Shown: positions 11,224 to 36,089 of the stretch, piece by piece | How positions within the stretch are numbered: the stretch's first letter is position 1 | Layout of the letters: each line of letters opens with the position of its first letter | Source of the DNA: Clostridia bacterium | Lineage (GTDB): Bacteria > Bacillota > Clostridia > Christensenellales > Aristaeellaceae | Assembly (NCBI GenBank): GCA_030526225.1 | Contig: JAUNDF010000004.1 | Coordinates: forward strand, 1 to 36,354 | Length of the DNA stretch: 36,354 nt | Direction of reading: 5' to 3' | Translations under genes and position numbers: made by a program | Notes under the pieces: model-generated | The model's database searches: none | What the model was told of the DNA's origin: nothing | Seen by the model: the letters and a program-made list of their open reading frames with translations, nothing else

Positions 11224-12738
11224 TTAATTTGCTTTGGTGTTCTTTGCTTCATCACAGCGGGGCAGCTGAATGATAAAGGTGGTGCCGCTGCCCAGCCGGG
11301 TTTCAATCCGCAGCACGCCAAGGTGGCTCCGGATAATCTGCCGCACATAGTACAGCCCCATGCCCCAGTTCAGGTTGGTGTTTTTGCTGGAGAAGAAGGG
11401 CTCGTAGATGTGCCGCAGCTGTGCCTTGGGGATGCCGTTGCCGCAATCGGTGATTTCCACCACCGTCCACAGCCGTTCCTGATGGCAGTTGACCACCAGC
11501 GGCGTATCACGACCGGCGCTCTGCTGCGCTTCCCAGCCGTTGAGCAGGATATTGTAAAGTGCCTCGGAAAAATGGTTCCGGTCGCACAGGATATTCGTAT
11601 TCGGCGGGATGGAAAGCTCCACCCGGGCTTCGGGGTATTTTTTCTTCAGCCGCTATAGTGCCAGCGCGCACACATACCACAGGGATATCGGCACCAGCGT
11701 GATGGAATTGGTCCGGATGCCCTTGTACAATTCCTCCATGCGGCTGATCATGTAGGCATTGTTTTGCTCCAGCTGCCGGTGATATTCCCACAGCTGGTTC
11801 ATGTCGGGCTATGGCTGCGCCATCATGGCACCCATGCGCTTGAGCAGCACACGGTTGGCCAGCAGCTGGTTTTTCACCGAGTGCACAAACACGCTGGCAC
11901 CCTTGCTGGCCGCATCAAACTTGCGGCTGATGGCAATTTCGTTCTGGTCGCTGGTGATGGTGTCCTTCATGTATTTCAGCTGGACATAAATCCCGGCGGC
12001 AGTGCAGACCATCACCAGCACAAACACAGCCGTGTAGTTGAACAGACTAAATGACGGGGACAGATACCACAGCCCCTGGGAGGAGCTGATAAATTCGTTG
12101 CGGTAGAACAGATAGACCTGTGCCGGATCCTGGGGCGCATAGAGCATGTACAGCATCATCAGGCTGATGACCGTCACCGCCTGACCGATGAACTTGTGCT
12201 TGTAAAAGGGCATGGTAATATCGCGGTATTCCATGGTCAGCAGCACCAGTGCCGCCACATTCTGGGCGCAGACGGCCATCAGCGAGCCGGTGACCAGCAC
12301 GTTCATCATCCCGCGGCTGCGGGTGATGATGGCCTCAAACACGCCGGGGGCATACACCGTCAGCAGCACCGCCGTAACCAAAGCGGAGATGCCCATCACA
12401 ATCCACCGGCCCGTTTTCTTCAGCCGCTTGCAGTAGTATGCCGCAAGCCCCGTGGCCGCCAGCGGGAACAGGTACCGGCCAATGGCCAGAAGGTAGCCCA
12501 GCTTGTCCAGGGTAAACATCAGGTACTGCAGCTTGACGCGCACGGCATGGGTGCCATACAGCAGCGTTTCCAGCTCTGTGCCGATGCCGCCCTTTTTGGC
12601 GATGTAGATGAGCATAAACATCCAGAACTCCACCAGCGCCGCATTGAGCAGCAGCACCAGCAGCGTTTCCCTGTTGCGGCGGACACAAAAGAGGGCGACA
12701 GCAGACAGCATCAATAATGCAAGCATTATCATGGCCAC
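11224..12738 (-). CDS. Membrane sensor histidine kinase interrupted by two in-frame TAG codons
   Basis: Residues 1-250 form about seven membrane segments. A short helical region carries the phospho-acceptor motif FVHSVKNQLL. The C-terminal half is a HATPase_c domain with HFSEALYNILLNGWEA (N box), DCGNGIP, YEPFFSSKN and WGMGLYYVRQI. The reading frame is continuous over 504 codons apart from TAG at residues 310 and 362. Stopping at the first TAG would remove the whole ATPase domain. No ribosome site precedes an internal start that would restore it, and both halves stay in the same frame. I annotate one gene with TAG read as an amino acid. GTG 12738 follows AAAGGAGG by 9 nt. It probably pairs with the response regulator at 9905-9237. 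If TAG is a true stop here, this is a pseudogene. Ends TAA. Confidence 0.85.
11653..11655 (-). other. In-frame TAG, residue 362 of the sensor kinase
   Basis: Context GCA CTA TAG CGG CTG. It lies between the dimerisation region and the ATPase domain in a helical, polar stretch (ALAL-X-RLKKKYPE). The frame is unchanged on both sides. Confidence 0.85.
11809..11811 (-). other. In-frame TAG, residue 310 of the sensor kinase
   Basis: Context CAG CCA TAG CCC GAC. It lies about 30 residues after the HSVKN phospho-acceptor motif, before NQLWEYHRQLEQ. Everything needed for ATP binding is downstream in the same frame. Confidence 0.85.
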
Positions 12739-12777
12739 TGCTACCGCCCTCCTTTATTTACCCGTTTATGCCCGAAA

Positions 12778-12805
12778 TGCAGCCCGGGTTTAACCCCAGG
12801 CTGCA
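12778..12805 (-). other. Intercistronic hairpin between binding-protein and kinase genes
   Basis: A 28-nt inverted repeat (arms TGCAGCC and GGCTGCA plus an inner GGG/CCC) lies 40 nt after the binding-protein stop. On the minus strand it is followed by ATTTCGGGC, a poor T-run. It is therefore more likely an mRNA-stabilising or partial-termination element, giving more binding protein than downstream regulator, than a full terminator. Read on the plus strand it is followed by TGTTTTTA. Confidence 0.55.
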
Positions 12806-12844
12806 AATGTTTTTATGGGGGATGATTCAGGTTTGCGCCGTTTC

Positions 12845-13819
12845 TTACTTGCCGGCTTCAACCATCACGTCGAACAGCACGTAGTCGGATACGGGAACTT
12901 CCTTCTCCACTGCGCCGGAAGCGATGAAAGCATCCTGCTGTACCTTGTAGTAGCCTTCGATGGTGCCGTCCTGAGCGCCGGTGATGATGGTCTGGCTGTT
13001 GGGCCAGGTGGCGTCGCCGGTCTGGGCCAGAGCGGATTCGAAGTCAGTGCCGCACTGAGCTGCCACCCACTGGGCAACCTGCTCGAAGTTGGCGGGATCG
13101 GAAGCGAAGTCCATGGCCTTGTACAGACCGCGGGTGAACTTCAGCACGGTGTCACGGTTGTTGTCCATGTAGCCGCTGAGCACAATCCAGGAAGCGGGAG
13201 ATACGGACTTGTGAGCGAAGGTGGCGTTGGAGCACAGCTTCACGCAGTCATCACCCAGAGCGGCCATGATGACGCCGGTGTTGGGGGACCAGGCAGCGCA
13301 GGCATCGATGGAGCCGGAGATCATGGCGGTTACCAGAGAGGAAACTTCCATTTCATAGGCTTCGATGTCGTTCATGGTCAGGCCGGCTTCTTCCAGAGCG
13401 TACTGCAGAATCATTTCGGAAGAGGTACCGGAGGAGTAGCCAACCTTCTTGCCCTTCAGGTCAGCATAGGTGGAGATACCGGCAGAGGGGCGAACCAGCA
13501 CAGCGTCGGCGTCGCCGATCTGGCTGAGCATGAAGACCTTGGCGCGGCCGTTGATGCACAGCTTGTGAGCGCCGGGTCCGATGTAGCCCATGTCGATGGA
13601 GCCGGATTCCATAGCAGCGATGATGGTGGGGCCGTCAGCGAATTCAACCAGCTGAACATCCAGACCTTCTTCAGCGAAGTAGCCCTGATTGATGCCGGTC
13701 ACAACGGACCACAGGCTGGCGTAGTTGGGCATGTAAGCGATGGACAGGCTTTCGGCAGATGCCAGGGATACGCCCATCACCATGACCAAAGCGAGAAGCA
13801 GAGCAGCAAACTTTTTCAT
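12845..13819 (-). CDS. ABC transporter substrate-binding protein, SsuA/TauA/NMT1 type
   Basis: The secreted or membrane-anchored solute receptor of the adjacent transporter. A Sec signal peptide (MKKFAALLLALVMVMG, cleavage near LASA-ES) is followed by a periplasmic-binding fold typical of nitrate/sulfonate/taurine/thiamine-precursor receptors: GYFAEEGLDVQLVEF, a GSIDMGYIGPGAH segment, DLKGKKVGYSSGTSS and GSIDACAAWSP. The ligand cannot be read from sequence. The frame is open six codons further, but ATG 13819 has AAGGAGG 8 nt upstream. It is the third gene of the transporter operon (permease, ATPase, receptor). Codon use is strongly biased, fitting high expression. 324 residues, stop TAA. Confidence 0.88.
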   Translation of the reverse strand: MKKFAALLLALVMVMGVSLASAESLSIAYMPNYASLWSVVTGINQGYFAEEGLDVQLVEFADGPTIIAAMESGSIDMGYIGPGAHKLCINGRAKVFMLSQIGDADAVLVRPSAGISTYADLKGKKVGYSSGTSSEMILQYALEEAGLTMNDIEAYEMEVSSLVTAMISGSIDACAAWSPNTGVIMAALGDDCVKLCSNATFAHKSVSPASWIVLSGYMDNNRDTVLKFTRGLYKAMDFASDPANFEQVAQWVAAQCGTDFESALAQTGDATWPNSQTIITGAQDGTIEGYYKVQQDAFIASGAVEKEVPVSDYVLFDVMVEAGK

Positions 13820-13888
13820 GAGGGTGTCCTCCTTCATATTTATTCAAGCGGACTCGCCGCTTAAATTCGTTTTTTCAGGATGCAGAAA

Positions 13889-14701
13889 TTACTTTCTGAC
13901 CTCCAGGTATTCCTGATAGACCTGACCCCAGATGTGGTTCTTCAGTTCCATAAATTCGGGGGTCATCTTGGTTTCCTGGGTACGGGGATAGGGGATGTTG
14001 ATGTCCACAATCTCCTTGATGCGGCCGGGGCGGGCAGACATGATGATGACCTTCTGGGCCAGAATGATGGCCTCATCCACATCGTGGGTGATGAAGAAGC
14101 AGGTCTTGTTGTGCTTTTCCCAGGTCTCCAGCAGCTCGGTCTGCAGCTGGGTGCGGGTCTGGGCATCCAGTGCGCCGAAGGGCTCGTCCATCAGCAGTAC
14201 CTCGGGCTCGGCTGCATAGGCACGGGCGATGGCCACGCGCTGCTTCATGCCGCCGGAAAGCTCCTTGGGGTAGCTGTCGGCAAACTTGGCCAGGTCAACC
14301 ATTTCCAGATACTTCATGGCTTCCTCTTCGGCCTTTTGACCCTTGATGCCGCGCATCTCCAGGGCGAACATAACGTTCTTTTTCACCGTCAGCCAGGGGA
14401 ACAGGGCGTACTGCTGGAACACCACACCGCGGTCGGTGCCGGTGCCGACAACTTCCTTGCCATTGCAGTATACCTTGCCCTCGGTGGGCTCCAGCAGGCC
14501 TGCAATGATGTTGAGCAGCGTGGACTTGCCGCAGCCGGAGGGGCCCACCACGCAGATGAATTCGTTCTCGTGGATATCCAGGTCAACACCGTTGAGGGCA
14601 ATCATTTCACCGTTGCGGGTGTTGTACTTTTTGACAACGTGGTCAATATGAACCTTCACAGGACGGGTGTCCTTGCTCAGATTTCTCTCTTCTCCTGCCA
14701 T
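13889..14701 (-). CDS. ABC transporter ATP-binding protein, SsuB/TauB type
   Basis: Powers the SsuABC-type importer from the cytoplasmic side. It has 270 residues with Walker A GPSGCGKST, Q-loop FQQYALFPW, signature LSGGMKQR, Walker B VLLMDEPFGALD and the switch FFITHDVDEA, all intact. ATG 14701 has AGGAG 9 nt upstream and overlaps the permease end by 25 nt, indicating coupled translation. Stop TAA. Confidence 0.92.
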   Translation of the reverse strand: MAGEERNLSKDTRPVKVHIDHVVKKYNTRNGEMIALNGVDLDIHENEFICVVGPSGCGKSTLLNIIAGLLEPTEGKVYCNGKEVVGTGTDRGVVFQQYALFPWLTVKKNVMFALEMRGIKGQKAEEEAMKYLEMVDLAKFADSYPKELSGGMKQRVAIARAYAAEPEVLLMDEPFGALDAQTRTQLQTELLETWEKHNKTCFFITHDVDEAIILAQKVIIMSARPGRIKEIVDINIPYPRTQETKMTPEFMELKNHIWGQVYQEYLEVRK

Positions 14702-15462
14702 GAGGTCAGTCTCCTCTCCAGATACTTAATCAGCTTTTCAACACAGATGCCGATGATACCGATGAGGATGATGTACATCAGCATGGGGGCGGGTTCAAAG
14801 GAGTTGCTCAAAGAGCGGATGCGCATGCCCAGACCGGCGGTGGCACCGGTGGACTCGGCGGCAATCAGGGTGGTCAGGGCAACGGAGGCGCCCAGACGAA
14901 CAGCGGTCAGGATGAAGGGAGTGGTGGCCGGGAAAATCACGCGGACGAAAATGTCCATGTCCTTGGCACCCAGCACGCGGGCGGCCTTGATCAGGGTTTC
15001 ATCCACGTTGATGACGCCCTGGAAGACCGTGATACACATGGTCAGGAAGCAGGCGATGGTGATGACGATTACCTGAGGACGCATGCCAACGCCGGCGGCG
15101 ATAACAATCAGAGGCACGTAGGCCAGCGGGGGAATGTTGCGGATGAACTGAATCCAGGGCTCAATCACGTAGCGGACGGGCTTGTACCATGCCATCAGGA
15201 AGGCCACAGGCACTGCGATGACAAAGCCCAGAATGTAGCCCAGGGAGACGGAGCGCAGGGAGTAGCCGATGTCCTTGAGCAGCACGCCGCGCTCGAACAT
15301 GGTCTTGATGCTGCCGAACACCTTGGCAGGGTTGGGGAATGCACGGGAGGTTGCGGGGATGATGGAAAGCACCATCCACAGACCAAAGGCGGCGGCCAGG
15401 GAAATCAGCAGCCATGCCCAATGCGGAATCCGGTCGGCTCCGCTTTGTTTCTTCTTATTCAT
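14677..15462 (-). CDS. ABC transporter permease, SsuC/TauC type
   Basis: The membrane channel of the SsuABC-type importer. It has 261 residues with about six hydrophobic segments and the ATPase-contact loop AARVLGAKDMDIFVRVIFP, matching the EAA motif of binding-protein-dependent permeases. It is the first gene of the long minus-strand run, and the -10/-35 at 15603-15631 lie about 140 nt upstream of it. ATG 15462 follows GAGGG by 6 nt. Stop TGA. Confidence 0.9.
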   Translation of the reverse strand: MNKKKQSGADRIPHWAWLLISLAAAFGLWMVLSIIPATSRAFPNPAKVFGSIKTMFERGVLLKDIGYSLRSVSLGYILGFVIAVPVAFLMAWYKPVRYVIEPWIQFIRNIPPLAYVPLIVIAAGVGMRPQVIVITIACFLTMCITVFQGVINVDETLIKAARVLGAKDMDIFVRVIFPATTPFILTAVRLGASVALTTLIAAESTGATAGLGMRIRSLSNSFEPAPMLMYIILIGIIGICVEKLIKYLERRLTSWQEKREI

Positions 15463-15602
15463 TGGCGTCCCTCACTTCAAATAATCCATATAGGATTGAT
15501 GATGGTATCATCATACCCCACCCGGACGCCTTTGGGAAGGTTGATTTTCCTTCATCCCTTTTTGTTATGTTCCCGAAAACCATTCCCTTATGGTCTGCCT
15601 TC

Positions 15603-15631
15603 ATTATACAGAAAGATGGCCGTACATACAA
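15603..15631 (-). promoter_or_regulatory. Sigma-A-type promoter for the transporter/catabolic run
   Basis: Minus strand TTGTAT (15631-15626), 17-nt spacer, TATAAT (15608-15603). It lies upstream of the permease gene and is divergent from the plsY promoter. Confidence 0.65.
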
Positions 15632-15660
15632 TCCGCCAAACCGATTTTCTGTGGCGGATT
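15630..15660. promoter_or_regulatory. Candidate operator: 9-bp perfect inverted repeat between divergent promoters
   Basis: AATCCGCCA (15630-15638), 13-nt gap, TGGCGGATT (15652-15660). The half-site centres are 22 bp apart, about two helical turns. The repeat touches the -35 region of both divergent promoters, as expected for a dimeric regulator's site. The regulator is unknown; the response regulator at 9905-9237 is one candidate. Confidence 0.6.
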
Positions 15661-15670
15661 CGGGCAGATT

Positions 15671-15680
15671 GTGCTATAAT
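15671..15680 (+). promoter_or_regulatory. Extended -10 promoter of plsY
   Basis: TGCTATAAT (TATAAT at 15675-15680) matches the extended TGnTATAAT element. The -35 position (near 15652-15657) is poor and overlaps the inverted repeat. Confidence 0.6.
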
Positions 15681-15751
15681 ATCTGCTCCGCCAAGCCTGC
15701 AGTTTTCCTGCGGCAATGCGGAAAGGGAACCATTCAAAGGAGAATCGGAAA

Positions 15752-16402
15752 TTGATTGCATCGTTGATATACATCGTGTTCAGCTACCTGTGCGGCAGCA
15801 TTCTGTTTGCAAGGGTGGCCATGCTGCTCTTCGGCAAGCAGCACATATTGGCCGACAGCAAGGACAACAACCCCGGCACGGCCAATGCCTTTATGCACGG
15901 CGGATTTTTCCCCGGCGTGTTCACCCTGCTGGGTGATTTGCTCAAGGGCTTTCTGCCGGTGCATCTGCTGATACAATACGGTCCCGCCGAGCCTTCCTTC
16001 CTGATGCTGACGCTGGTGCTGGCGGCCCCGGTGCTGGGCCACGCCTTCCCCGTGTTCTTCCATCTGGAGGGCGGCAAGGGCATCGCCACCACCTTCGGGT
16101 GCCTGCTGGGGCTCCTCCCCTTCTGGCAGCCGCTGCTCTGCTTTGCGTTTTCCTTCATACTGCTCAGCACGGTCATCCGCATTTCACCCCATTTCCAGCG
16201 CACTGCCGCCGCGTATCTGCTGGCCATCACCCTGATGCTGTTCTTCTCTCAGCCCATGCCGGTGATTCTCGGCTTTATGCTGATTGCGCTGGTGGTGTCC
16301 GTCCGGCTGCTGATGAGCAAGGAGCATCGGGAGAAAACGCAGGTCTATCTGCTGTGGTTCAAAATCCTCGGTGAGGATGAGGAAACCCACAAAATCGCAT
16401 AA
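15752..16402 (+). CDS. plsY: Glycerol-3-phosphate acyltransferase PlsY-like
   Basis: An integral membrane enzyme that transfers an acyl group from acyl-phosphate to glycerol 3-phosphate, the first step of phospholipid synthesis. The three family motifs are present in slightly divergent form: CGSILFAR, DNNPGTANAF (usually GNPGATN), and GHAFPVFFHLEGGKGIAT, with GDLLKG between. Five or so hydrophobic helices follow. TTG 15752 is preferred because AAAGGAG lies 9 nt before it and the hydrophobic N-terminus begins there; ATG 15716 has no ribosome site. That gives 216 residues, the usual length. The divergent NNPGTAN motif may mark a paralogue. Stop TAA. Confidence 0.85.
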   Translation: MIASLIYIVFSYLCGSILFARVAMLLFGKQHILADSKDNNPGTANAFMHGGFFPGVFTLLGDLLKGFLPVHLLIQYGPAEPSFLMLTLVLAAPVLGHAFPVFFHLEGGKGIATTFGCLLGLLPFWQPLLCFAFSFILLSTVIRISPHFQRTAAAYLLAITLMLFFSQPMPVILGFMLIALVVSVRLLMSKEHREKTQVYLLWFKILGEDEETHKIA

Positions 16403-16404
16403 GC

Positions 16405-16444
16405 AAAGGGCTGTGAAGCATCAAAAAGCGTTTCACAGCCCTTT
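16405..16444. terminator. Bidirectional terminator between plsY and the DUF218 gene
   Basis: A perfect 13-bp stem, AAAGGGCTGTGAA (16405-16417) with TTCACAGCCCTTT (16432-16444), closes a 14-nt loop. It lies between convergent genes, and A/T runs at both ends let it work in both directions. Confidence 0.88.
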
Positions 16445-16449
16445 ATTAA

Positions 16450-17334
16450 TCAGCTTTCCTTCCCCAGCACCGTTTTCACCAGCAGCAGCGCACAGGAGAA
16501 AAACTCGCGGATGATGTAATGCCCAAGGGTGATTTTGGAGGAGTGCACCGGCAGGCCGTATACCTTCCGGCCCAGCACTCGCTTGGCAATCAGTCCGGCG
16601 CGGAACTGGTGGTAGTCATCCGTCACCAGCGCCACCTTGCTGCCCTCGGGGAGCATGGCCGCGGCATTGCGCAGATTTTGGATGGTGTTGCGGGATTTGT
16701 CCTCCAGCACAATCCGCTCCGGCGCAATCCCCTGAGCCTGCAGCCGGCGGCTGATGCTCTCCGCCTCGCTGATGGCTTCGTTGCTCCCCTGCCCGCCGGA
16801 GGCAATGACCTTTGTTTCAGGGGATGCCTGCAGGTACGCAGCCGCCGCATCACAGCGGATGAACAGCACCTTCGATTCTGACTGGCAGCCCAGCACAATC
16901 AGGTAATCCATCCCGGGCGGGCATTTTTTGTACGCATGCCTTGCAATGATGAACAGCACCGTCAGGAATACCGCAAACACCAGCGCACACACCGCGCCCA
17001 CGGAGAAATACTTCACCGGCGAAACGCGGGTGGCCAGCCCCATCTGGATTACCACATGCATGGCCACACTGCGCAGGAAAAGCACCGTACCAAGAATCGG
17101 CCACAGCTTCATGCCCGGCAGCTTCCACCCGAATTTGAAGCCCAGCAGCAGCCAGTACCCGAAGCACAGCAGGCTGACCACAAAGTAGCCGCCGTTGATT
17201 TTTCTGCGTGAAGCCGCCTGCGCCCATTCCAGCATCTATGGATGAATCGTCCGGCGCAGGCTGCCGTACACCAGCGCCAGCAGAGCCAGCGCCACCGGCA
17301 CCACCACCAGCCAGAGCCACTTTTTCCTTTTCAT
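16450..17334 (-). CDS. DUF218 (YdcF/SanA-like) membrane protein with an in-frame TAG codon
   Basis: A YdcF/SanA-type protein: N-terminal membrane helices, then a Rossmann-like DUF218 domain beginning DYLIVLGCQ, with ASGGQGSNEAISEAESI and LEDKSRNTIQNLRNA as family motifs. Members act in envelope or polysaccharide-related processes of unclear chemistry. The first helix (WLWLVVVPVALALLALVYG) lies before a TAG at residue 33 (17238-17236), and the next helix follows in the same frame. ATG 17235 directly after the TAG has no ribosome site, whereas ATG 17334 has AAAGGA 8 nt upstream. Read through, the protein has 294 residues. A shorter form starting at 17235 cannot be excluded. Stop TGA. Confidence 0.8.
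17236..17238 (-). other. In-frame TAG, residue 33 of the DUF218 protein
   Basis: Context CAT CCA TAG ATG CTG. It lies in the loop after the first membrane helix. Of the six TAGs this is the weakest case, because the rest of the protein could start at the next codon. Confidence 0.7.
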
Positions 17335-17380
17335 CGTTCCATTCCTTTCCGTCCCGTTTGTCATCTTCATGGATGCTTTC

Positions 17381-17389
17381 ATTATACCA
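17381..17389 (-). promoter_or_regulatory. Extended -10 promoter of the DUF218 gene
   Basis: Minus strand TGGTATAAT (TATAAT at 17386-17381), 47 nt upstream of ATG 17334. This supports transcription starting before the short N-terminal segment that precedes the in-frame TAG. Confidence 0.6.
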
Positions 17390-17402
17390 TATCCCGCGGA
17401 TA

Positions 17403-17433
17403 AACAAAACCTCCCCCGGCTGCCCGGAGGAGG
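17403..17433 (-). terminator. Rho-independent terminator after the 17998-17459 gene
   Basis: Minus strand CCTCCTCCGG, loop GCAG, CCGGGGGAGG, then TTTTGTTT. It is 25 nt past the stop. Confidence 0.85.
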
Positions 17434-17458
17434 AATTTGCGTCAAATAAACCGGCTGA

Positions 17459-17998
17459 TTATTCCTTGATGACAACATTCAGGTCCGTGAACAGCTGCAT
17501 GGCCAGTTCACGGTCGGCATCGGTCAGATCGCGGCCGTCGGCATAGCCGTAGTACACATGGAACACATAGCCGTGATAAATGCTGCTGATTTCAAGGCTG
17601 TCATAGCCCTCGCCCATGGTTTCAATCACCACTGCTTCGGTGCCGTGACCGGAGGTCTTGATTTCGTAGTTCTTTTCGTCATCATCCTCAAACAGGGATT
17701 CGGCGAAGGCCTTCTTCTCGTCCTCGGTCAGGTCGTTGAGGCGGGCGGTTTCATCATGCTCGTCATCGGCAGCCACCAGCATCAGCACACTGGGGACATC
17801 GGCATTGTCATCCTTGCCGGCCATGTACACAAACAGCACGCCTTCATCCGTGACATCGGTCAGGGCTTCAAACTGCTCGGGGATGTCCATGGTAAAATCC
17901 ATGCCCTTGTCATATTCCACAATCATCGTTTCGGCACAGGCAGCACCCACGCCCATCAGCATCACAGCCGCCAGAAGCAGCGCAATCAGTTTTTTCAT
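17459..17998 (-). CDS. Small secreted protein of unknown function
   Basis: I do not recognise a family. The 179-residue product has a clear Sec signal peptide (MKKLIALLLAAVMLMGVGAACA), cleaved near CA-ET. The mature part is acidic, with a run of Asp/Glu around DLTEDEKKAFAESLFEDDDEKN and alternating strand-like segments. It ends in a helix containing DADRELAMQLF. The overall look is that of small PsbP/DUF1795-like secreted proteins, but this is only a resemblance. AGGAGG lies 8 nt before ATG 17998. It follows the SH3 gene by 30 nt and probably shares its promoter. Stop TAA. Confidence 0.8.
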   Translation of the reverse strand: MKKLIALLLAAVMLMGVGAACAETMIVEYDKGMDFTMDIPEQFEALTDVTDEGVLFVYMAGKDDNADVPSVLMLVAADDEHDETARLNDLTEDEKKAFAESLFEDDDEKNYEIKTSGHGTEAVVIETMGEGYDSLEISSIYHGYVFHVYYGYADGRDLTDADRELAMQLFTDLNVVIKE

Positions 17999-18028
17999 TG
18001 TTGTATCCTCCTGATGATATAGCTTGAA

Positions 18029-18622: not shown

Positions 18623-18659
18623 AGTGATTCCTCCTTGTACTGCCGCACACACGGCATTG

Positions 18660-18673
18660 TGACAATTTTGTCA
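18660..18673. promoter_or_regulatory. Inverted repeat TGACAA-N2-TTGTCA in the SH3 gene leader
   Basis: A 6-bp perfect inverted repeat with a 2-nt gap, just downstream of the predicted transcription start of the SH3 gene. The position would suit a repressor site. The regulator is unknown. Confidence 0.4.
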
Positions 18674-18686
18674 TTTCTCTATGTTC

Positions 18687-18929: not shown

Positions 18930-18932
18930 CTG

Positions 18933-22866: not shown

Positions 22867-23544
22867 TTATTTTATCTTCATCGTCCGCAGCAGCTGCTTT
22901 TGTTCATCGGTGATGCGGAAGCTTTCGCAGGCCTTCTGAATGGCCTTGTTGTGGGTCCATCTGTCCAGCCGTTGGTCTGTCAGGTACGGCAAGGCCGCAT
23001 CCCACTGCTTGACCAGCGCCTCGGCAAAGAGCCACGCGGTCATCATGTTCACGTAATATTCCTCCGAACGGAGCGAGGCGGCAAGGTCAAGGAAGCCGGG
23101 GCGGAAATCCTCCTGCAGGTAGTGGCACATCACCATGCGCAGACCGAAGCGGCGGGTGTAGGTTTCCGCCGACTGCATCCACCGCGGCACATGCTCTGCC
23201 AGCTCATCGCGATGCTTTTTGAAGCAGGCAGGGTTCAGGCTGTCATTGACCGCCCAGTTATCAATATAAGGAAGAAACGCCTCCACCTTTTCCACACAAG
23301 CATCGTAATCCTTCATCTGATTGAGCAGCGCCGCATGCAGACTGTTTTCCTCGTGATAGGCGTGGGGCAGCCGGGTCAGGAATTCCTCTGCGGCTTCACT
23401 GCCGATTTCCCGGATGATTTTCTTATACTCCGGCGCGCGCACCCCGATGACCTTCTCACGGGGCGTGGTGGGAATCAGCTTTGCAAGAAAATCACCGTAC
23501 GCCGCATCCTGATGCTGATAAATCACCGCAAGAACATCCGTCAT
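22867..23544 (-). CDS. DNA alkylation repair protein, AlkD-like
   Basis: A HEAT-repeat protein of 225 residues resembling AlkD DNA glycosylases, which remove alkylated purines without flipping the base. Typical segments are GVRAPEYKKIIREIG, YIDNWAVNDSL (with the Trp-Asp region that contacts the lesion), YTRRFGLRMVMCHYL and THNKAIQKACES. AGGAGG lies 6 nt before ATG 23544. It follows the DUF2238 gene by 18 nt and is probably co-transcribed with it. No clear terminator is seen downstream. Stop TAA. Confidence 0.88.
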   Translation of the reverse strand: MTDVLAVIYQHQDAAYGDFLAKLIPTTPREKVIGVRAPEYKKIIREIGSEAAEEFLTRLPHAYHEENSLHAALLNQMKDYDACVEKVEAFLPYIDNWAVNDSLNPACFKKHRDELAEHVPRWMQSAETYTRRFGLRMVMCHYLQEDFRPGFLDLAASLRSEEYYVNMMTAWLFAEALVKQWDAALPYLTDQRLDRWTHNKAIQKACESFRITDEQKQLLRTMKIK

Positions 23545-23562
23545 GGCAAACCTCCTGAAGCA

Positions 23563-24363
23563 TCACGCATTTTGTTCCATTTCCACCTGCGGGATAAACC
23601 GGGAGGCGAATTTGCCCTTCCCCCGGCTGGCCACATAAATATACCCGATGATGGAGAACACCACCGCGCCGATGAAGTTCACGAACAGGTCCTTCATGGT
23701 ATCCGCAATGCCGATATCCAGATAGCCTCCCAGGCCCAGTGACTGCTGGCTGCCGTCGGAGTGAACCACAATCACATCCTGAATGTCATCCACGGCAATC
23801 ACCTTGTTGGAACGCGTTTCATCCAGCTCCACGGTGTACACGGTGTTGACGATGGTGTCCTTCTGCATGTCGGTATGCACCAGCAGGTCACTGCCGAACT
23901 CAAAGAACTCCCACAGCACACCCACGGTCATGGAGAAGCAGAAGGCCACAATGGCCAGAAACAGCGGCGACAGCTTCACGGAAAACCGCTCGCTGCGGTT
24001 GAGCATATCCACCAGCGAAAAACCGATGGCCGCGCAGCAGAAGCCGTTGAGGGTATGGAGGATGGTATCCCAGTTTTCTACCTTAATATAAAAGCTGTTG
24101 ATTTCGCCCAGAATTTCCGCGCAGAAGATGAACAGCAGAATGATGACCTCCATGGTGGAGGGCAGGGTGATTTTCAGCGTCTTCTGCAGGATGCTGGGGA
24201 GAATCATCAGCACCAGTGAAAAGGCACAGAGGAAAACGCTCTCAAACTCGCGGCGGAAAATGCAGCGGACCATGGTCAGAATGACCAGCAGCCGCAAAAC
24301 CACATACACCGCCATGGTGGTTTTGTTGGTATACCATTCCTTTTTCTTCCTTTGATTTTTCAC
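23563..24363 (-). CDS. DUF2238-like membrane protein
   Basis: A polytopic membrane protein of 266 residues with about six helices, resembling YjdF/DUF2238. The family motif WDTILHTLNGF is followed by a helix and LVDMLN, and VGVLWEFFEFGSDL lies in a later helix. A soluble loop rich in Asp and Val lies between the fifth and sixth helices. Function unknown. GTG 24363 is preferred over GTG 24372 because GAGGAG lies 10 nt upstream of the former and only 1 nt from the latter. Stop TGA. Confidence 0.8.
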   Translation of the reverse strand: MKNQRKKKEWYTNKTTMAVYVVLRLLVILTMVRCIFRREFESVFLCAFSLVLMILPSILQKTLKITLPSTMEVIILLFIFCAEILGEINSFYIKVENWDTILHTLNGFCCAAIGFSLVDMLNRSERFSVKLSPLFLAIVAFCFSMTVGVLWEFFEFGSDLLVHTDMQKDTIVNTVYTVELDETRSNKVIAVDDIQDVIVVHSDGSQQSLGLGGYLDIGIADTMKDLFVNFIGAVVFSIIGYIYVASRGKGKFASRFIPQVEMEQNA

Positions 24364-26535: not shown

Positions 26536-26554
26536 TCTGAATATCGGTTCTCTC

Positions 26555-28810: not shown

Positions 28811-28817
28811 ACCTTTC

Positions 28818-28855
28818 CCCCGGACAGGCACATAGCCCGTTCGGGGAAATTTTTA
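28818..28855 (+). terminator. Rho-independent terminator after the CHASE kinase gene
   Basis: CCCCGGAC (28818-28825) pairs with GTTCGGGG (28839-28846), followed by AAATTTTTA. Confidence 0.85.
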
Positions 28856-28910
28856 TCTGTTGACAGATACGCCGCTTTGCCTTCCCACGCTTCTAATTTT
28901 TGTAAAAACC

Positions 28911-28939
28911 TTGACACATCAACGCATCCGATGCAAAAT
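28911..28939 (+). promoter_or_regulatory. Promoter of the ABCG-like transporter operon
   Basis: Consensus TTGACA (28911-28916), 17-nt spacer, CAAAAT (28934-28939), within a run ATATATATG. The leader to ATG 28996 is about 50 nt. Confidence 0.65.
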
Positions 28940-28995
28940 ATATATATGTAACAATTTCTGTGCAGCTTCTGCTCACAACAGAAAGTAACGGGTCT

Positions 28996-31472: not shown

Positions 31473-31491
31473 CCATTGCATCATCCTGCAT

Positions 31492-31527
31492 AACCGCGGT
31501 TTGCAACAGCAGCCGCGGTTTTATTTT
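31492..31527 (+). terminator. Rho-independent terminator after the ABC permease
   Basis: AACCGCGG (31492-31499) pairs with CCGCGGTT (31513-31520), followed by TTATTTT. Confidence 0.88.
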
Positions 31528-31536
31528 GCAGATTGA

Positions 31537-31565
31537 TTGACTTTTTGCCCCATACAACCTATAAT
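31537..31565 (+). promoter_or_regulatory. Promoter of the HPt-cheR operon
   Basis: TTGACT (31537-31542), 17-nt spacer, consensus TATAAT (31560-31565). It is the best promoter match in the window. Confidence 0.8.
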
Positions 31566-31633
31566 ATAGAATGAAATAATGGCTGTTTGTATCCAACAGG
31601 TAACCAAATCATACATAAAGGCAGGTTTATACC

Positions 31634-31993
31634 ATGACTGTACCCGAGCTGTACGTTGCCCTGAACGGCAATTATGATGAAGCAAAATCCCGACTGATGA
31701 ACGACCGGCTGATTGATAAATTCGTGCTGAAGTTCCTTGCCGACCCCACCATGCAGACCCTGCATGATGCCGTGGCTTCCGGCGACATTGAGGAATCCTT
31801 CCGTGCAGCACACACCATGAAGGGCGTGGCAGGCAATCTGGCCTTTACCATGCTGGCCGATGCCGCCCATCAGCTGACCGAGCAGCTGCGCCCCCGCACC
31901 GACAAGGCTGATGATGCCCTGTACGCCGCCGTGGTGCGCGCCTACGAATCCACCATCAGCGCCATCAAAGCCTACGAAGCCCAGAAGGCATAA
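31634..31993 (+). CDS. Stand-alone HPt (histidine phosphotransfer) protein
   Basis: A 119-residue, all-helical phosphorelay carrier. The HPt signature AHTMKGVAGNLAF contains phospho-His60. Such proteins pass phosphate from the receiver of a hybrid kinase to a final response regulator. The two hybrid kinases in the window (21485-18933 and 26723-28810) both end in a receiver and lack HPt, so either could be the donor (inference). AAGGCAGG precedes ATG 31634. The stop TAA is 2 nt before the cheR start. Confidence 0.9.
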   Translation: MTVPELYVALNGNYDEAKSRLMNDRLIDKFVLKFLADPTMQTLHDAVASGDIEESFRAAHTMKGVAGNLAFTMLADAAHQLTEQLRPRTDKADDALYAAVVRAYESTISAIKAYEAQKA

Positions 31994-31995
31994 CG

Positions 31996-32784
31996 GTGAC
32001 TGAAAGCTACGAATCCTTTACCCGGGCGTTTTTTGCCCTGGCAGGCTTTGACCTTGGCTGCTACAAGGAGAACCAGATCAGACGCCGCGTTGATGCACTG
32101 ATGCTGCGAAACGGCTTTTCCGGCTACGGGGAATACCTGCAGCAGCTGAAGACCCATCCGGAGCTGGTGCGCCAGTTTATGGATTACGTCAACATCAATG
32201 TCAGCGAGTTTTTCCGCACCCAGCGCCATTGGGTGCACTTGGATGAACGGGTGCTGCCCGATTTGGTCAAGCGCTTCGGCAGCAGGCTGCGCATCTGGTC
32301 TGCGGGCTGTGCCACGGGCGAGGAGCCCTATTCCATCGCCATGAGCCTGTCCCGGCTGGTGCCGCTGGAGGACATTGCCATCATCGCCACCGATGTGGAT
32401 GAAAATGCGCTTGCCCTCGCTGCCCGGGGTGAATACAGTGCCTCTGCCATGGCCCATGTGCCGCAGGAATTCCGTTCCCGCTTTTTTATCCGCCGGGGGC
32501 ACAGCTATTGTGTCACGCCGGCGCTGCGCAGCTGTGTGACCTTCCGCAGGCAGGATTTGCTTCAGGACAATTATTTCCCCGGCTGTCACCTGATTGTATG
32601 CCGCAACATGCTCATCTATCTGACCGAAACGGCCAAGCAGCGTGTTTTCTGCGGCTTTTACGATGCCCTTGTCCCCCACGGCGCGCTGTTCCTCGGCAAC
32701 GCATAGCAGCTGCCCACCTATCGTGAAATGGGCTTTGAACGCCTTGCCAAAGCCATGTATATCAAGCGGGATTTGGGAAGGTAA
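31996..32784 (+). CDS. cheR: CheR-type protein-glutamate methyltransferase with an in-frame TAG codon
   Basis: An S-adenosylmethionine-dependent methyltransferase of the chemoreceptor-modifying CheR family. The N-terminal helical domain (1-75, ENQIRRRVDALM, NINVSEFFR) is followed by the SAM-binding motif SAGCATGEEPYSIAM (102-116), ATDVDENAL and VCRNMLIYL. The C-terminal strand pair GALFLGNA-X-QLPTYREMGFE is split by TAG at residue 237. It continues in frame to TAA 32782-32784, giving the normal family length (262 residues). CheR proteins have G(S/H)xE(Q/S) here, so X sits at the conserved Glu. GTG 31996 lies 2 nt after the HPt stop with AAGG upstream. No chemoreceptor or CheB gene is present. 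Confidence 0.87.
32704..32706 (+). other. In-frame TAG, residue 237 of CheR
   Basis: Context AAC GCA TAG CAG CTG. It aligns with the nearly invariant Glu of the CheR C-terminal motif (GSTEQ in Firmicutes). This is the best single position for deducing the decoded amino acid. Confidence 0.88.
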
Positions 32785-32785
32785 T

Positions 32786-32816
32786 ACTCCTTCCGGCGAA
32801 GCTGACTGAGGGAGTG
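32786..32816. repeat. Decayed palindromic repeat fragment
   Basis: An imperfect inverted repeat (ACTCCTTC ... GAGGGAGT) just after the cheR stop. The inverse complement contains CTCCCTCAGTCAGCTTCGCC, which looks like part of a dispersed Clostridia intergenic repeat. Only one copy is in the window, so this is tentative. Confidence 0.35.
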
Positions 32817-32856
32817 TGCGTGCAAACACCATCCATCCGAAAAAACCATATAAGCA

Positions 32857-32884
32857 AAGGAGCTGTGAATTTTCACAGCTCCTT
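32857..32884. terminator. Bidirectional terminator between cheR and the CapD-like gene
   Basis: AAGGAGCTGTGAA and TTCACAGCTCCTT form a near-continuous stem between convergent genes, with a T-rich tract on the plus side. Confidence 0.85.
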
Positions 32885-32905
32885 CTTCTATTTTATATCA
32901 GCTCT

Positions 32906-34834
32906 TCACCCCACCGCCCGGTTAACCTCCTCGGGGGTTTTGAAGGTGGGGACCACCTGATGCATCACCTTGCGGACTTGCGCATCATCCGTGATGGCAT
33001 CACGCAGCATGGACAGCTTTTCCTCCAGCTGGGCCATGGTGACGGGCTCTTCCTTCTCGATGAAAATCAGGTCGTTGTCCGTTTTCTCCAGCAAATCGGA
33101 CTTGACCAGCAGCTCCTCGTACAGCTTTTCGCCGGGGCGAAGGCCGGTCTCAATGATTTCAATGCCCTGCACGCCGCTGAGCTGAATCATGTTCCGGGCC
33201 AGATCGTAAATCTTCACCGGCTTGCCCATATCCAGCACAAACAGCTCACCGTTCTGCGCCATGGCACCGCTGACCAGCACCAGCTGGCTGGCCTCGGGGA
33301 TGGTCATAAAGTAGCGGATGATGCGCTTGTCCGTCAGCGTTACAGGGCCGCCGGCGGCAATCTGGCGCTTGAACAGCGGAATCACGCTGCCTGCACTGCC
33401 CAGCACATTGCCGAAGCGGGTAGCGCTGCACTGTACCTTGCCTCTGGTGGAATACGCCTGCATCACCATCTCGCACATGCGCTTGGTGGCACCCATGATG
33501 TTGGTGGGGTTCACCGCCTTGTCGGTGGAAACCATCATAAAGCGGCCGCAGCCGTATTCCTCACACAGCTGGATGACATTCAGCGTGCCGAAGATGTTGT
33601 TCTCCACCGCTTCAATGCAGTTCTTTTCCATCAGCGGCACATGCTTGTGAGCCGCGGCATTGATGCAGATATCGGGGCGGTATTCCTCAAACACCCTTGC
33701 CAGACCCTTCTTGTTGGTAATGGAGACAATCTCCACCCGGATATCCAGCTTGCCCCGGTAGGCAAAGGTCAGGCCCTGCTGCAGGTCATAGGCGCAGTTT
33801 TCGTAGATATCCACCACGATAATCTGCTTGGGGTTCATCTTGGCCAGCTGTCGGCACAGCTCGGAGCCGATGGAGCCGCCGCCGCCGGTAATCAGGATTT
33901 TTTTGCCCTGATAGTAGGCGCGGGTCTTGTCGTCAATCAGTTCCTTCTGCTCCCGCATCAGCAGATCCTCAATGTTGAATTCGCGCAGTTGGCGCTTTCT
34001 GCCGGGGATTTCCATGGCGGGGAAATCGAACACCTTGATGGCAAAGCCGGCCTTTTTGTAGTACTCCACCAGCTCCATCTTTCTCGTGCGGCTCATGGTG
34101 GGGATGGCGAAGACCACCTCCTGAATCTGGTGGCTGCGGAGGGTCTCAAAGGTGGCATCGTTTTCATCCAGCACGGATACGCCGTGGATGTCGCGGCCCA
34201 CCTTTTGGGGATCGTTGTCGATAAAGCAGCGGGGAATGTACTTGGCCTGAGGGTTCTGCCACAGGTCCTCTGCCAGCCCGATGCCCACAGAGCCGGCACC
34301 GATGATGGCAATCTTGATTTTGGAATTGTTGGGGTCGGCCTCGGTGCGCACGCGGCCGCCGGTGAACACCTTCAGCATCAGCCGCATCACCCGGCCCAGC
34401 AAGTCATCCCGGTTGCCGCACTTGTAGGCATAGCGGTACACCATGCGGATGGCCAGCGCGCCCAACAGGTTGATACAGCTGAAGGCCAGAATGCGGACCA
34501 CGGCAATGTGGGGGATTTTGATCAGGTAGCTGAGCATCAGGTACAGCATAAAGGCACAGCCATCAGCCAACAGCATCAGGATGTAGCACTGGATGCCGCC
34601 GTAGCGCCAAATCTGCCGGTAGATGTGCATACCAATGCGCATGCCGAAAATACACACCGCCGCCAGAGCGCTGTGGGTCAGCACGGCGTACATGCTCATT
34701 TTGCCGCCGCCGCGATAGTACACAAACAGCACCATCACCACTGCCGCGAAAATCAGCGCATCAAACAAGCCCAGCGACAGCTTGACGCTGAACTTTTTTC
34801 CTTTTTGCCGTGGACGCTTGGTATTCAAGGGCAT
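32906..34834 (-). CDS. Membrane-bound nucleotide-sugar 4,6-dehydratase, CapD/WbpM-like
   Basis: Makes 4-keto-6-deoxy nucleotide sugars for capsule or glycan synthesis. Four N-terminal helices are followed by a first Rossmann-like domain (IKIAIIGAGSVGIGLAEDL) and the short-chain dehydratase domain: TGGGGSIGSELCRQLAK for NAD binding, VSTDKAVNPTNIMGATKRM with the MxxxK variant of the catalytic pair typical of WbpM/FlaA1, and a C-terminal RPGEKLYEELL. ATG 34834 gives 642 residues. Its AAGGAG is only 3 nt away, so TTG 34828 is an alternative start. The frame opens further upstream but would overlap the VanZ gene. Last gene of the capsule cluster. Stop TGA. Confidence 0.9.
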   Translation of the reverse strand: MPLNTKRPRQKGKKFSVKLSLGLFDALIFAAVVMVLFVYYRGGGKMSMYAVLTHSALAAVCIFGMRIGMHIYRQIWRYGGIQCYILMLLADGCAFMLYLMLSYLIKIPHIAVVRILAFSCINLLGALAIRMVYRYAYKCGNRDDLLGRVMRLMLKVFTGGRVRTEADPNNSKIKIAIIGAGSVGIGLAEDLWQNPQAKYIPRCFIDNDPQKVGRDIHGVSVLDENDATFETLRSHQIQEVVFAIPTMSRTRKMELVEYYKKAGFAIKVFDFPAMEIPGRKRQLREFNIEDLLMREQKELIDDKTRAYYQGKKILITGGGGSIGSELCRQLAKMNPKQIIVVDIYENCAYDLQQGLTFAYRGKLDIRVEIVSITNKKGLARVFEEYRPDICINAAAHKHVPLMEKNCIEAVENNIFGTLNVIQLCEEYGCGRFMMVSTDKAVNPTNIMGATKRMCEMVMQAYSTRGKVQCSATRFGNVLGSAGSVIPLFKRQIAAGGPVTLTDKRIIRYFMTIPEASQLVLVSGAMAQNGELFVLDMGKPVKIYDLARNMIQLSGVQGIEIIETGLRPGEKLYEELLVKSDLLEKTDNDLIFIEKEEPVTMAQLEEKLSMLRDAITDDAQVRKVMHQVVPTFKTPEEVNRAVG

Positions 34835-34856
34835 CCGCTCCTTCCCGAAGGGGAAT

Positions 34857-35360
34857 TTATGGTTGATCCTGCTTCCGCCGCTCCAGACGCTTGTAGAGCA
34901 TATACGCGCCCACACCGATGACGGTGCCGAGGGTGTTGGAAATCAGGTCGTCAATTTCACACAAGCCCAGCTTGCACACCAGCTGCACCGCTTCCGTCAG
35001 GGCAGACAAGGCAAAACCGGAAAGAATCACCAGCCACCACTTCAGCCGCGGAAAGGCGTGGTGCATCAGATAGCCAAGGGGGACATACAGCAGGATGTTG
35101 AGGATAACCTCCTCCCGCAGCTCCGCATCCCCCTGCGCCCACGCCGCGTAGGACCAAAAGGGCGTCAGCTCCATGTGGTGATACATCCGCACCGGCCGTG
35201 ACAGCATGGTCAGATAAATGTTGGCGAACAGGTACACCGCCAGCAAGAGGTAGTTGATAAAGCTGAGCAGCCGCGGATAGCGCCGAAGAAGGTGGGAAAC
35301 CACCGGCAGTGCCAGCACCATGGCCAGCACCACGCCGCTGAAAAAGGTTACCTTATCCAT
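34857..35360 (-). CDS. VanZ-like membrane protein
   Basis: A 167-residue membrane protein with about four helices and the VanZ-family features: ELTPFWSY near the middle, the motif NILLYVPLGYLMHHAFPRLK, ALTEAVQLVCKLGLCEIDDLI and NTLGTVIG. VanZ-like proteins often lie in cell-wall or capsule clusters; their biochemical role is unclear. It starts 6 nt after the phosphatase stop and ends 22 nt before the dehydratase start, so all are co-transcribed. Stop TAA. Confidence 0.88.
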   Translation of the reverse strand: MDKVTFFSGVVLAMVLALPVVSHLLRRYPRLLSFINYLLLAVYLFANIYLTMLSRPVRMYHHMELTPFWSYAAWAQGDAELREEVILNILLYVPLGYLMHHAFPRLKWWLVILSGFALSALTEAVQLVCKLGLCEIDDLISNTLGTVIGVGAYMLYKRLERRKQDQP

Positions 35361-35366
35361 GGCGCG

Positions 35367-36089
35367 TCACCATCCTTGGGCGGCCTGCTCCGCCGGATTG
35401 ATGCAAAGCATCCGCTCCACGTAGGCCCGGGGATAATGCGCCAGCAGCTTCTCCCCTGCTTCCCGCTGGAGGAAGGGTCGCTGGGGCAGCACATGGGCAT
35501 CGGAGGCGATGTAGTCAATCAATTCACCGCGCAGCCAGCGGCGGATGAGCAGCCTGTCCCCCAGCGTCCTTGGCTGGAGGATACTGCGGGCATTGACCTG
35601 CAGCTGCAGGGTTGAAAACCGCGCCTTCAGCTTCTATGCGGCACGAAAGCTGTGCAGACAGCGGTACCGCTCGCCGTGGGCGATGATGGGCTGATAGCCG
35701 GATTCCTCCAGCACCGCCAGCAGCGCTTCCATGTCCTTCATGGGGATGGAGGGCGAAAACTCTGCCAGCACCCGGTTGCTGTCCCCCAGCGTCATCAGCC
35801 GGCGGGAACGGGCATAGGGCACCATGGCAGGTGTGCACAGGATTTCCGCCCCCGGCACCAGCCGGATGGGATAGCCCATGGCACGGCAGTAGTCCTGTGC
35901 CTATGCCAAATGCGCCTGAAACAGCGCCCCGTCAAAGGGCTCCACCCCGGGGACCACATGGGGCGTGGCCATCAGCAGGCCGATACCCTGATGGTAAGCC
36001 GCATCCAGCAGCTGCTGCATATGTGCCCGGTCAGGCGCGCCGTCATCCACACCGTATACAAAGTGGGAATGGATATCCTGCAGCATCAT
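35367..36089 (-). CDS. YwqE/CpsB-like PHP tyrosine-protein phosphatase with two in-frame TAG codons
   Basis: Dephosphorylates the partner BY-kinase in capsule control. The whole family can be followed through 240 codons: metal-binding IHSHFVYGVDDGA, ATPHVVPG, PGAEIL, AHGERYRCL, QLQVNARSIL and IASDAH. TAG interrupts the frame at residues 63 (HLA-X-AQDYC) and 152 (RAA-X-KLKARF), where relatives mostly have polar or Glu residues. Frame and motifs are intact across both. As separate pieces none would have a full active site or a plausible start. ATG 36089 overlaps the BY-kinase TGA (ATGA), so translation is coupled. Either TAG is decoded or the gene is dead; the otherwise perfect frame favours decoding. 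Ends TGA. Confidence 0.87.
35634..35636 (-). other. In-frame TAG, residue 152 of the YwqE-like phosphatase
   Basis: Context GCC GCA TAG AAG CTG. It lies between the AHGERY motif and the LKARF helix, at a position usually polar in CpsB/YwqE proteins. Confidence 0.87.
35901..35903 (-). other. In-frame TAG, residue 63 of the YwqE-like phosphatase
   Basis: Context TTG GCA TAG GCA CAG. It lies in the helix before PGAEIL, where relatives often have Glu (HLEEA). Confidence 0.87.

What the first reader, a model, noticed from the sequence alone, without database searches (positions are those of the whole stretch)
11224..36089. TAG appears to be a sense codon in this genome
Seen: four conserved genes contain six in-frame TAGs (11809, 11653, 17236, 32704, 35901, 35634) with all family motifs intact on both sides, no frameshift, and no in-frame TAA or TGA. 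All 31 genes with visible 3' ends stop at TAA (20) or TGA (11). Decay would give a mixture of stops and indels. Known: TAG is reassigned to Gln in some phages and eukaryotes, and to pyrrolysine in some methylamine-using prokaryotes. I know of no established amber-to-sense code in free-living Firmicutes used across ordinary genes. Inference: recoding, or efficient suppression, probably to Gln or Glu.
Basis: partly seen in the sequence, partly recalled or inferred. Interest (0 to 1): 0.95.

Follow-up and report, generated by a model that had tools for sequence, protein, structure and literature searches.

The report
Bacterium that reads UAG as glutamate
A bacterium whose relatives were found in animal guts lacks the gene for the protein that normally stops translation at UAG, and it likely reads that former stop signal as the amino acid glutamate throughout its genes.

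Summary
All six window TAGs are confirmed. In a 603 kb sample of the parent genome (a 79.8% complete MAG, 2.19 Mb), 67 in-frame TAGs lie in 57 of 465 predicted genes. Genes that would end at TAG under the standard code continue open and coding-like in 37 of 43 cases (5 of 55 in relative G024). Of 103 homology-defined gene ends, one was called TAG and proved internal; relatives end at TAG in 20 of 151. A Codetta-style inference recovers 61 of 61 sense codons and assigns TAG to Glu (23 sites; Gln 10 nats worse); several sites are near-invariant Glu in homologues (97/97, 117/119, 120/120). The RF1 gene prfA is missing and its slot is closed: relatives have prmC-prfA-tsaC, here tsaC starts 30 bases after prmC inside a 38 kb contig. 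The decoding tRNA was not found. No CUA anticodon is assembled, but the assembly also lacks tRNA-Tyr, tRNA-Ile(GAU) and RF2. The assembled tRNA-Glu(CUC) has an unusual 4-bp anticodon stem. Best reading: UAG=Glu after RF1 loss. Eight searches of the held paper library listed no bacterial UAG-to-sense code.

The parts
11224..12738 (-). Sensor-kinase-like gene (HATPase_c), 504 aa, with two in-frame TAGs
   Evidence: Open with TAG as sense; Pfam PF02518 (residues 386-494) lies downstream of both TAGs
11809..11811 (-). TAG codon, kinase residue; homologue residues E1 T1 N1 of 3
11653..11655 (-). TAG codon, kinase residue; homologue residues E 8 of 8
16450..17478 (-). DUF218 membrane protein gene with one in-frame TAG near the N-terminal transmembrane helix (true start uncertain)
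   Evidence: the helix is seen by eye
17236..17238 (-). TAG codon in the DUF218 gene; no homologue column available. An ATG follows directly, so an internal start is conceivable at this one site
31996..32784 (+). cheR, chemotaxis methyltransferase, 262 aa, with one in-frame TAG
   Evidence: PF01739 (residues 68-243) spans the TAG, and PF03705; the best homologues cover 97-98% of the read-through protein
32704..32706 (+). TAG codon at an invariant Glu of CheR (E 97 of 97)
35367..36089 (-). CpsB/CapC-type polysaccharide-synthesis phosphatase gene, 240 aa, with two in-frame TAGs
   Evidence: PF19567 over residues 4-234; matched in 72 of 150 family genomes
35901..35903 (-). TAG codon; homologue residues E9 Q4 K2 D1 A1 of 17
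35634..35636 (-). TAG codon; homologue residues E2 L1 of 3

Best explanation
In this bacterial genome the codon UAG lies inside genes instead of ending them and is likely translated as glutamate: the release-factor-1 gene prfA is missing from its place between prmC and tsaC, and a glutamate tRNA that has not yet been found is predicted to read UAG. RF1 is the factor that terminates at UAG. Without it, termination would rest on RF2 at UAA and UGA, the only stops seen at the ends of the genes I could define. TAG would then have accumulated as a rare extra Glu codon (0.62% of GAG+GAA+TAG) in ordinary chromosomal genes and in resident phage-like elements. Shown: in-frame TAGs across the sampled genome, no verified TAG terminators, Glu in the aligned columns, and prfA missing from its slot. 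Inferred: that the residue is glutamate in the protein, and that RF2 exists. Untested: the tRNA. The most likely decoder is a tRNA-Glu with a CUA anticodon in the unassembled fifth of the genome. The assembled tRNA-Glu(CUC), with its unusual 4-bp anticodon stem, is a less likely candidate.
For: TAG is sense. 67 TAGs lie in 57 of 465 predicted genes, in 26 of 41 stretches; 64 remain after dropping three upstream of a likely ATG start. Of 55 TAGs with 40 codons on each side, 54 are flanked by coding-like sequence on both sides; the same test gives 42 of 119 for TAA and 16 of 112 for TGA. 37 of 43 TAG 'ends' continue open and coding-like, against 5 of 55 in G024 and 0 of 7 in the loci L201-L204 of near relatives. 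TAG is not a stop. Homology-defined ends in this genome: TAA 73, TGA 29, TAG 1 of 103; the one TAG lies inside a longer coding frame. Relatives end genes at TAG in 7 of 86 (G024), 3 of 41 (G016), 8 of 17 (G076), 2 of 6 (G021) and 0 of 1 (G020), in all 20 of 151. The meaning is Glu. All 61 sense codons are recovered correctly; TAG (23 sites) gives Glu, then Gln -10.0, Asp -13.1, Lys -14.6, Arg -15.9 nats; leave-one-out gives Glu 23 of 23 times. Near-invariant sites: CheR E 97/97 and 117/119; HAMP domain E 120/120; window kinase E 8/8. RF1 is lost. No prfA match; prmC is present with its own in-frame TAG in a 38,163-base contig; tsaC starts 30 bases after the prmC stop; relatives carry prmC-prfA-tsaC, all three seen in that order in 9 of 18 loci. 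prfA is over the family cut-off in 271 of 308 family genomes and in 6 of 7 genomes reached through the GPI loci that I tested.
Against: No CUA-anticodon tRNA was found: none among the ARAGORN-called tRNAs at the 42 Rfam tRNA places and 0 hits of a tRNA-CUA pattern. The MAG is only 79.8% complete, and RF2, which must exist, is also missing, so absences alone are weak. Some TAG columns are not Glu: L118 15168 (R 15 of 27, E 1), L043 7915 (T 57 and S 41 of 126, no E listed), L120 2314 (mixed, K 19, E 14 of 94), L038 5100 (mixed, E 1 of 9), L101 2944 (G3 K1), and single-homologue T (L116), R (L119 7257) and G (L043 1568) sites. Relatives G016 and G076, with poorer coding models, also show coding-like continuation after 11 of 34 and 12 of 22 TAG ends. 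Only one genome of the genus is held. There is no protein evidence. TAA (2) and TGA (11) sites also pass the alignment filter; five of the TGA sites come from one L050 region that looks like antisense alignment.
Confidence: 0.9

Rival explanations
1. UAG is reassigned to glutamine, as in code-15 phages, read by a tRNA-Gln(CUA).
For: Gln is the second-best assignment, and UAA and UAG to Gln is the commonest change in eukaryotic nuclear codes (passage of PMC8629427).
Against: 10 nats worse than Glu over 23 sites; leave-one-out never picks Gln. The near-invariant sites are Glu, not Gln: 97/97, 117/119, 120/120. With 23 sites the method names GAG and CAG correctly in 599 of 600 resamplings.
Confidence: 0.04
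2. UAG is still a stop, and the genes are pseudogenes or carry sequencing or assembly errors.
For: It is a single metagenome-assembled genome; the sites have no independent read support here.
Against: Decay or error would give TAA, TGA and frameshifts as well. TAG-flanking sequence is coding-like on both sides in 54 of 55 sites, far above the TAA and TGA controls. No verified TAG terminator remains, and prfA is missing from its slot. G-to-T damage at GAG would also turn GAA (30 per 1000 codons) into TAA.
Confidence: 0.02
3. UAG is only suppressed: a suppressor tRNA competes with an RF1 that the assembly missed or that moved elsewhere in the genome.
For: About a fifth of the genome is not assembled; RF2 is also missing from the assembly.
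Against: The usual prfA place is present and closed, and no verified TAG terminators remain.
Confidence: 0.04
4. UAG encodes pyrrolysine.
For: Pyl is the known natural UAG meaning in some prokaryotes (recalled).
Against: PylS model TIGR02367 gives only two weak hits, 26.7 and 20.3 bits, below the cut-off of 178; 12 of 14 control genomes also ring below the cut-off. TAG lies at Glu columns in unrelated gene families.
Confidence: 0.01
5. UAG is read as Glu by the assembled tRNA-Glu(CUC), whose anticodon stem has only four pairs (C27.A43), with no CUA tRNA.
For: ARAGORN draws the first stem pair broken; the four tRNA-Glu(CUC) genes of relatives in my loci have five pairs. 4-bp-stem tRNA-Trp is reported to read near-cognate UGA (PMC13092985, abstract and sections 17 and 19).
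Against: That mechanism concerns a third-position C:A mismatch, while here the mismatch would be at codon position 1 (U against C36). 5.6% of bacterial tRNAs have 4-bp stems, and this genome's tRNA-Trp(CCA) has one too, 2 of 37 distinct tRNAs.
Confidence: 0.12

Closest known systems
UGA reassignments in bacteria (UGA=Trp in Mycoplasmatales and some endosymbionts; UGA=Gly in Gracilibacteria/Absconditabacteria; PMC8629427, passages seen)
   Same: A stop codon becomes sense across ordinary genes, with loss of the release factor that reads it
   Different: A different codon (UAG), a different release factor (RF1), a different amino acid (Glu); the assembly is 2.2 Mb and the sample 56% G+C, not a tiny AT-rich genome
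UAG=Glu with UAA=Lys in the ciliate Oligohymenophorea sp. PL0344 (PMC10553269, passages seen)
   Same: UAG means glutamate; in-frame TAGs fall on conserved Glu columns
   Different: A eukaryote; UAA is reassigned too; suppressor tRNA(CUA) genes most similar to tRNA-Glu were found there and not here
UAR=Glu in the trypanosomatid Blastocrithidia nonstop (start of abstract of PMC12153298 seen in search listing)
   Same: UAG read as Glu
   Different: A eukaryote in which all three stops are reassigned
UAG=Gln phages (code 15; start of abstract of PMC10607447 seen in search listing, the Gln meaning recalled)
   Same: TAG in frame in many genes
   Different: Phage genomes; Gln rather than Glu; their hosts keep RF1 (recalled)
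Pyrrolysine-using prokaryotes (recalled)
   Same: UAG has a sense meaning in a prokaryote
   Different: They need pylS and pylT (recalled); no PylS over the cut-off here

Membership tests
Bacterial stop-codon reassignment | The codon lies in conserved columns with one consistent amino acid | tested here: met
   23 TAG sites together give Glu, next best -10 nats; 61 of 61 sense codons correct; about nine of the sites taken singly are not Glu-rich
Bacterial stop-codon reassignment | The codon is no longer used as a terminator | tested here: met
   1 of 103 homology-defined ends was called TAG and proved internal; five relatives 20 of 151; 27% of the genome sampled
Bacterial stop-codon reassignment | The release factor for that codon is lost or altered | tested here: met
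   No prfA match; tsaC follows prmC directly where relatives have prmC-prfA-tsaC
Bacterial stop-codon reassignment | A tRNA gene reads the codon | tested here: inconclusive
   No CUA anticodon in the assembled tRNAs; the assembly also lacks tRNA-Tyr and tRNA-Ile(GAU)
Bacterial stop-codon reassignment | Shared by a clade | tested here: inconclusive
   No other genome of genus g1 appeared; four family relatives sampled keep TAG as a stop and 271 of 308 have prfA over the cut-off
Bacterial stop-codon reassignment | The residue is seen in protein | not testable with these tools
   No mass spectrometry
UAG=Gln code (code 15) | TAG at Gln columns | tested here: not met
   Glu favoured by 10.0 nats; leave-one-out Glu 23 of 23
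Pyrrolysine decoding | PylS over the family cut-off | tested here: not met
   Best hit 26.7 bits against a cut-off of 178.15; about 20% of the genome is unassembled

The most novel reading that the evidence does not exclude
A bacterial chromosome has fully reassigned UAG to glutamate with no dedicated UAG tRNA: after deletion of prfA, its ordinary tRNA-Glu(CUC), loosened by a C27.A43 break at the top of the anticodon stem, reads both GAG and UAG, tolerating a first-position mismatch.
Probability: 0.12. Interest if true: 0.97.

Novelty: new variant of a known kind. Interest (0 to 1): 0.94.

Why it matters
Natural bacterial stop-codon reassignments reported in the two surveys I looked at all free UGA (PMC8629427 introduction passage; PMC13092985 section 19). 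A UAG=Glu code in a 2.2 Mb assembly with 56% G+C, from an ordinary Clostridia family, would show that UAG and RF1 can be lost naturally in a bacterium. It happens outside tiny or AT-rich genomes, and to an amino acid that UAG has taken, as far as my searches show, only in eukaryotes. It would be a natural counterpart of the RF1-deleted laboratory E. coli strains. TAG is still a rare codon here, so the lineage may show an early stage of reassignment. It also means that genes of this lineage are cut short in public protein sets: two of its proteins are listed ending just before the TAG (P0001, 236 aa; P0124, 421 aa).

Tried and rejected
Gln meaning, pseudogenes or errors, suppression with RF1 present, and pyrrolysine were each tested and rejected (see rivals). 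A first count of long standard-code ORFs (23 of 169 ending at TAG) and a first coding model trained on them were contaminated by antisense ORFs and gave no TAG signal: 4 of 22 TAG ends had a coding-like downstream stretch, 13 of 63 for TAA and 10 of 69 for TGA. The model was replaced by one trained on homology-supported segments. The same kind of model trained on the relatives G016 and G076 is poor: in G016 11 of 34 and in G076 12 of 22 TAG ends look coding-like downstream, although by homology G076 stops at TAG in 8 of 17.

Rows dropped before counts: ignores frames under 90 codons or with a weak coding score; one search kept 3,026 of 4,121 alignments, dropping those that overlap a better one in another frame, and left out the masked stretch L129 and the two truncated copies of own proteins (P0001, P0124).

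Other relatives without prfA (G020, G021, G076) were looked at as possible sharers of the code. G021 (2 of 6) and G076 (8 of 17) end genes at TAG, so their missing prfA is probably incompleteness. The G020 sample was mostly masked (4 of 6 stretches read N) and says nothing. G222, G224 and G151 (94-97% complete, best prfA E about 4e-82 to 2.5e-89) were not followed up.

Two scans of viral contigs for a Glu-like CUA anticodon arm hit 34 stretches; ARAGORN called no CUA tRNA in any of them. The MutY and Y-polymerase matches in the PDB did not inform the TAG columns.
Full report
What was checked. The six TAGs are real and sit in four frames that are open when only TAA and TGA stop: a HATPase_c sensor kinase with two, a DUF218 protein with one, cheR with one, and a CpsB/CapC phosphatase with two. 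The CpsB-like protein matches 72 of 150 family genomes; among the matches listed, only this genome's copy has stops inside (2 TAG). The window is contig C72 of a metagenome-assembled genome of 2,194,793 bases in 136 contigs, 79.79% complete and 2.04% contaminated. The family is probably Aristaeellaceae (Clostridia): one homologue (P0287, 58% identical) of a kinase of this genome is named so, and the four nearest glucose-6-phosphate isomerase records (75-77% identical) are Clostridia or Clostridiales MAGs, three of them from goat colon or sheep rectum. That placement is an inference.

TAG is sense across the genome. I sampled 603,009 bases in 41 stretches including the window, 27% of the assembly. 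With a codon model trained on homology-supported segments, 465 genes carry 67 in-frame TAGs in 57 genes, spread over 26 of 41 stretches; three TAGs lie upstream of a likely ATG and should be dropped, leaving 64. Of 55 TAGs with 40 codons on each side, 54 have coding-like sequence on both sides; treating TAA or TGA as sense in the same way gives 42 of 119 and 16 of 112. Under the standard code 47 genes would end in TAG; of the 43 that could be scored 37 continue open and coding-like, against 24 of 257 TAA ends and 8 of 146 TGA ends in the same genome and 5 of 55 TAG ends in relative G024. In the other relatives the figures are 0 of 7 (L201-L204), 11 of 34 (G016) and 12 of 22 (G076), the last two with poorer models. 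TAG is used at 0.40 per 1000 codons against 34.2 for GAG, or 0.62% of GAG+GAA+TAG.

TAG is not a terminator. Aligning this genome to ORFs of G024 and G016 gave 173 segments and 51,591 codons, with 19 internal TAGs, 11 TGAs and 6 TAAs. Nine of the TGAs and two of the TAAs lie in L050 11,320-12,478, which looks like antisense alignment. Ends defined by homology were TAA 73, TGA 29 and TAG 1 of 103; the single TAG proved to be internal to a longer coding frame. In relatives TAG ends were 7 of 86 (G024), 3 of 41 (G016), 8 of 17 (G076), 2 of 6 (G021) and 0 of 1 (G020).

The meaning is glutamate. I collected homologue residues aligned to every codon of the sampled genome, requiring at least five identities in the 16 flanking positions and no gaps, and scored each amino acid by BLOSUM62 conditional probabilities. 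With 12 TAG sites Glu led Gln by 4.1 nats. With 229 reference loci and 358 homologous proteins there were 23 TAG sites: Glu first, Gln -10.0, Asp -13.1, Lys -14.6, Arg -15.9. All 61 sense codons came out right, leave-one-out gave Glu 23 of 23 times, and 300 resamplings of 23 sites gave E 300 of 300 for GAG, Q 299 for CAG, K 282 for AAG and D 299 for GAC. The strongest sites are the CheR C-terminal Glu at window 32704 (97 of 97), the CheR TEFFR Glu in L039 (117 of 119), the HAMP-domain Glu in L043 (120 of 120), the window kinase site 11655 (8 of 8), a C69 peptidase site (E 17, D 6 of 23) and two sites of a Suv3-like helicase (84 of 105, 71 of 107). Against: L118 15168 is mostly Arg (15 of 27), L043 7915 is Thr/Ser (98 of 126), L120 2314 and L038 5100 are mixed, and L101, L116, L119 7257 and L043 1568 are not Glu; these columns are variable or have few homologues. 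The homologue searches used TAG=E queries, which could bias hit choice slightly; the alignments themselves scored TAG as a stop. In the same analysis 2 TAA and 11 TGA sites passed the filter, five of the TGA in the L050 region.

RF1 is gone. The RF1 model found nothing in this genome, while 271 of 308 family genomes have prfA over the cut-off. RF2 is also missing from this assembly, so absence alone would be weak. In relatives, however, prfA lies between prmC and tsaC: prmC is upstream on the same strand in 15 of 18 loci, and all three genes are seen in that order in 9 of 18; in the rest one partner is beyond the stretch or was not detected, and one (L238) is an RF2 locus. In this genome prmC is present on contig C109 at 23238-23987, itself with an in-frame TAG. 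The contig is 38,163 bases long. prmC ends at a TGA, and tsaC (Sua5/YrdC) begins 30 bases later. That reads as a clean deletion of prfA within one contig.

Decoder. No CUA anticodon is among the assembled tRNAs, and a pattern for a CUA anticodon followed by a T arm has no hit in the whole assembly. The assembled set lacks tRNA-Tyr and tRNA-Ile(GAU), so a tRNA-Glu(CUA) could well be in the missing part; this is my leading prediction. The alternative is the assembled tRNA-Glu(CUC), which has a C27.A43 break and so a 4-bp anticodon stem, while the four found in relatives have five pairs. 4-bp-stem tRNA-Trp reads UGA elsewhere (PMC13092985; abstract and sections 17 and 19 read), but through a third-position mismatch; here the mismatch would be at the first position. 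Pyrrolysine is unlikely: PylS matches are far below the cut-off.

Novelty. The Codetta survey states that the bacterial changes then known reassign UGA (PMC8629427, passages), and the 2026 tRNA survey adds another UGA case (PMC13092985, section 19). UAG=Glu is known in a ciliate, with UAA=Lys (PMC10553269, passages), and UAR=Glu in a trypanosomatid (PMC12153298, start of abstract in listing). Eight searches of the held open-access library listed no paper that I could recognise as a bacterial UAG-to-sense code; the lists are capped. Most subscription papers and bioRxiv preprints are outside that library, so a priority claim would need checking.

Verdict. The evidence narrows it to UAG=Glu with loss of RF1. 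What is not shown is the tRNA and the residue in protein.

Noticed in passing
L044 (G000:C35), e.g. 5198-6358 and 9764-10786: A stretch with 8 TAGs in 11 predicted genes (2.25 per 1000 codons, the highest of the stretches), including a phage-type primase and an integrase: a likely resident mobile element that uses the new codon more heavily than the rest.
   Followed up: partly
L035 (G000:C125) 4834-6156 and 10727-11704: Portal-like and tail-fibre-like genes with in-frame TAG: prophage genes appear adapted to the host's code.
   Followed up: partly
L039 (G000:C12) 472-538: A truncated tRNA copy (30.7 bits) whose anticodon arm matches the intact tRNA-Ala(CGC) of L033; looks like an attachment-site remnant.
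   Followed up: partly
L032 (G000:C45) 15069-15142: The genome's tRNA-Trp(CCA) also has a broken pair in the anticodon stem; UGA is still used as a stop here.
   Followed up: no
genomes G222, G224, G151 of the same family: 94-97% complete, yet the best prfA match is only about 1e-82 to 1e-89; split genes or another RF1 loss.
   Followed up: no
G000:C109:23238-23987: prmC, the methyltransferase that modifies release factors, itself contains an in-frame TAG.
   Followed up: partly
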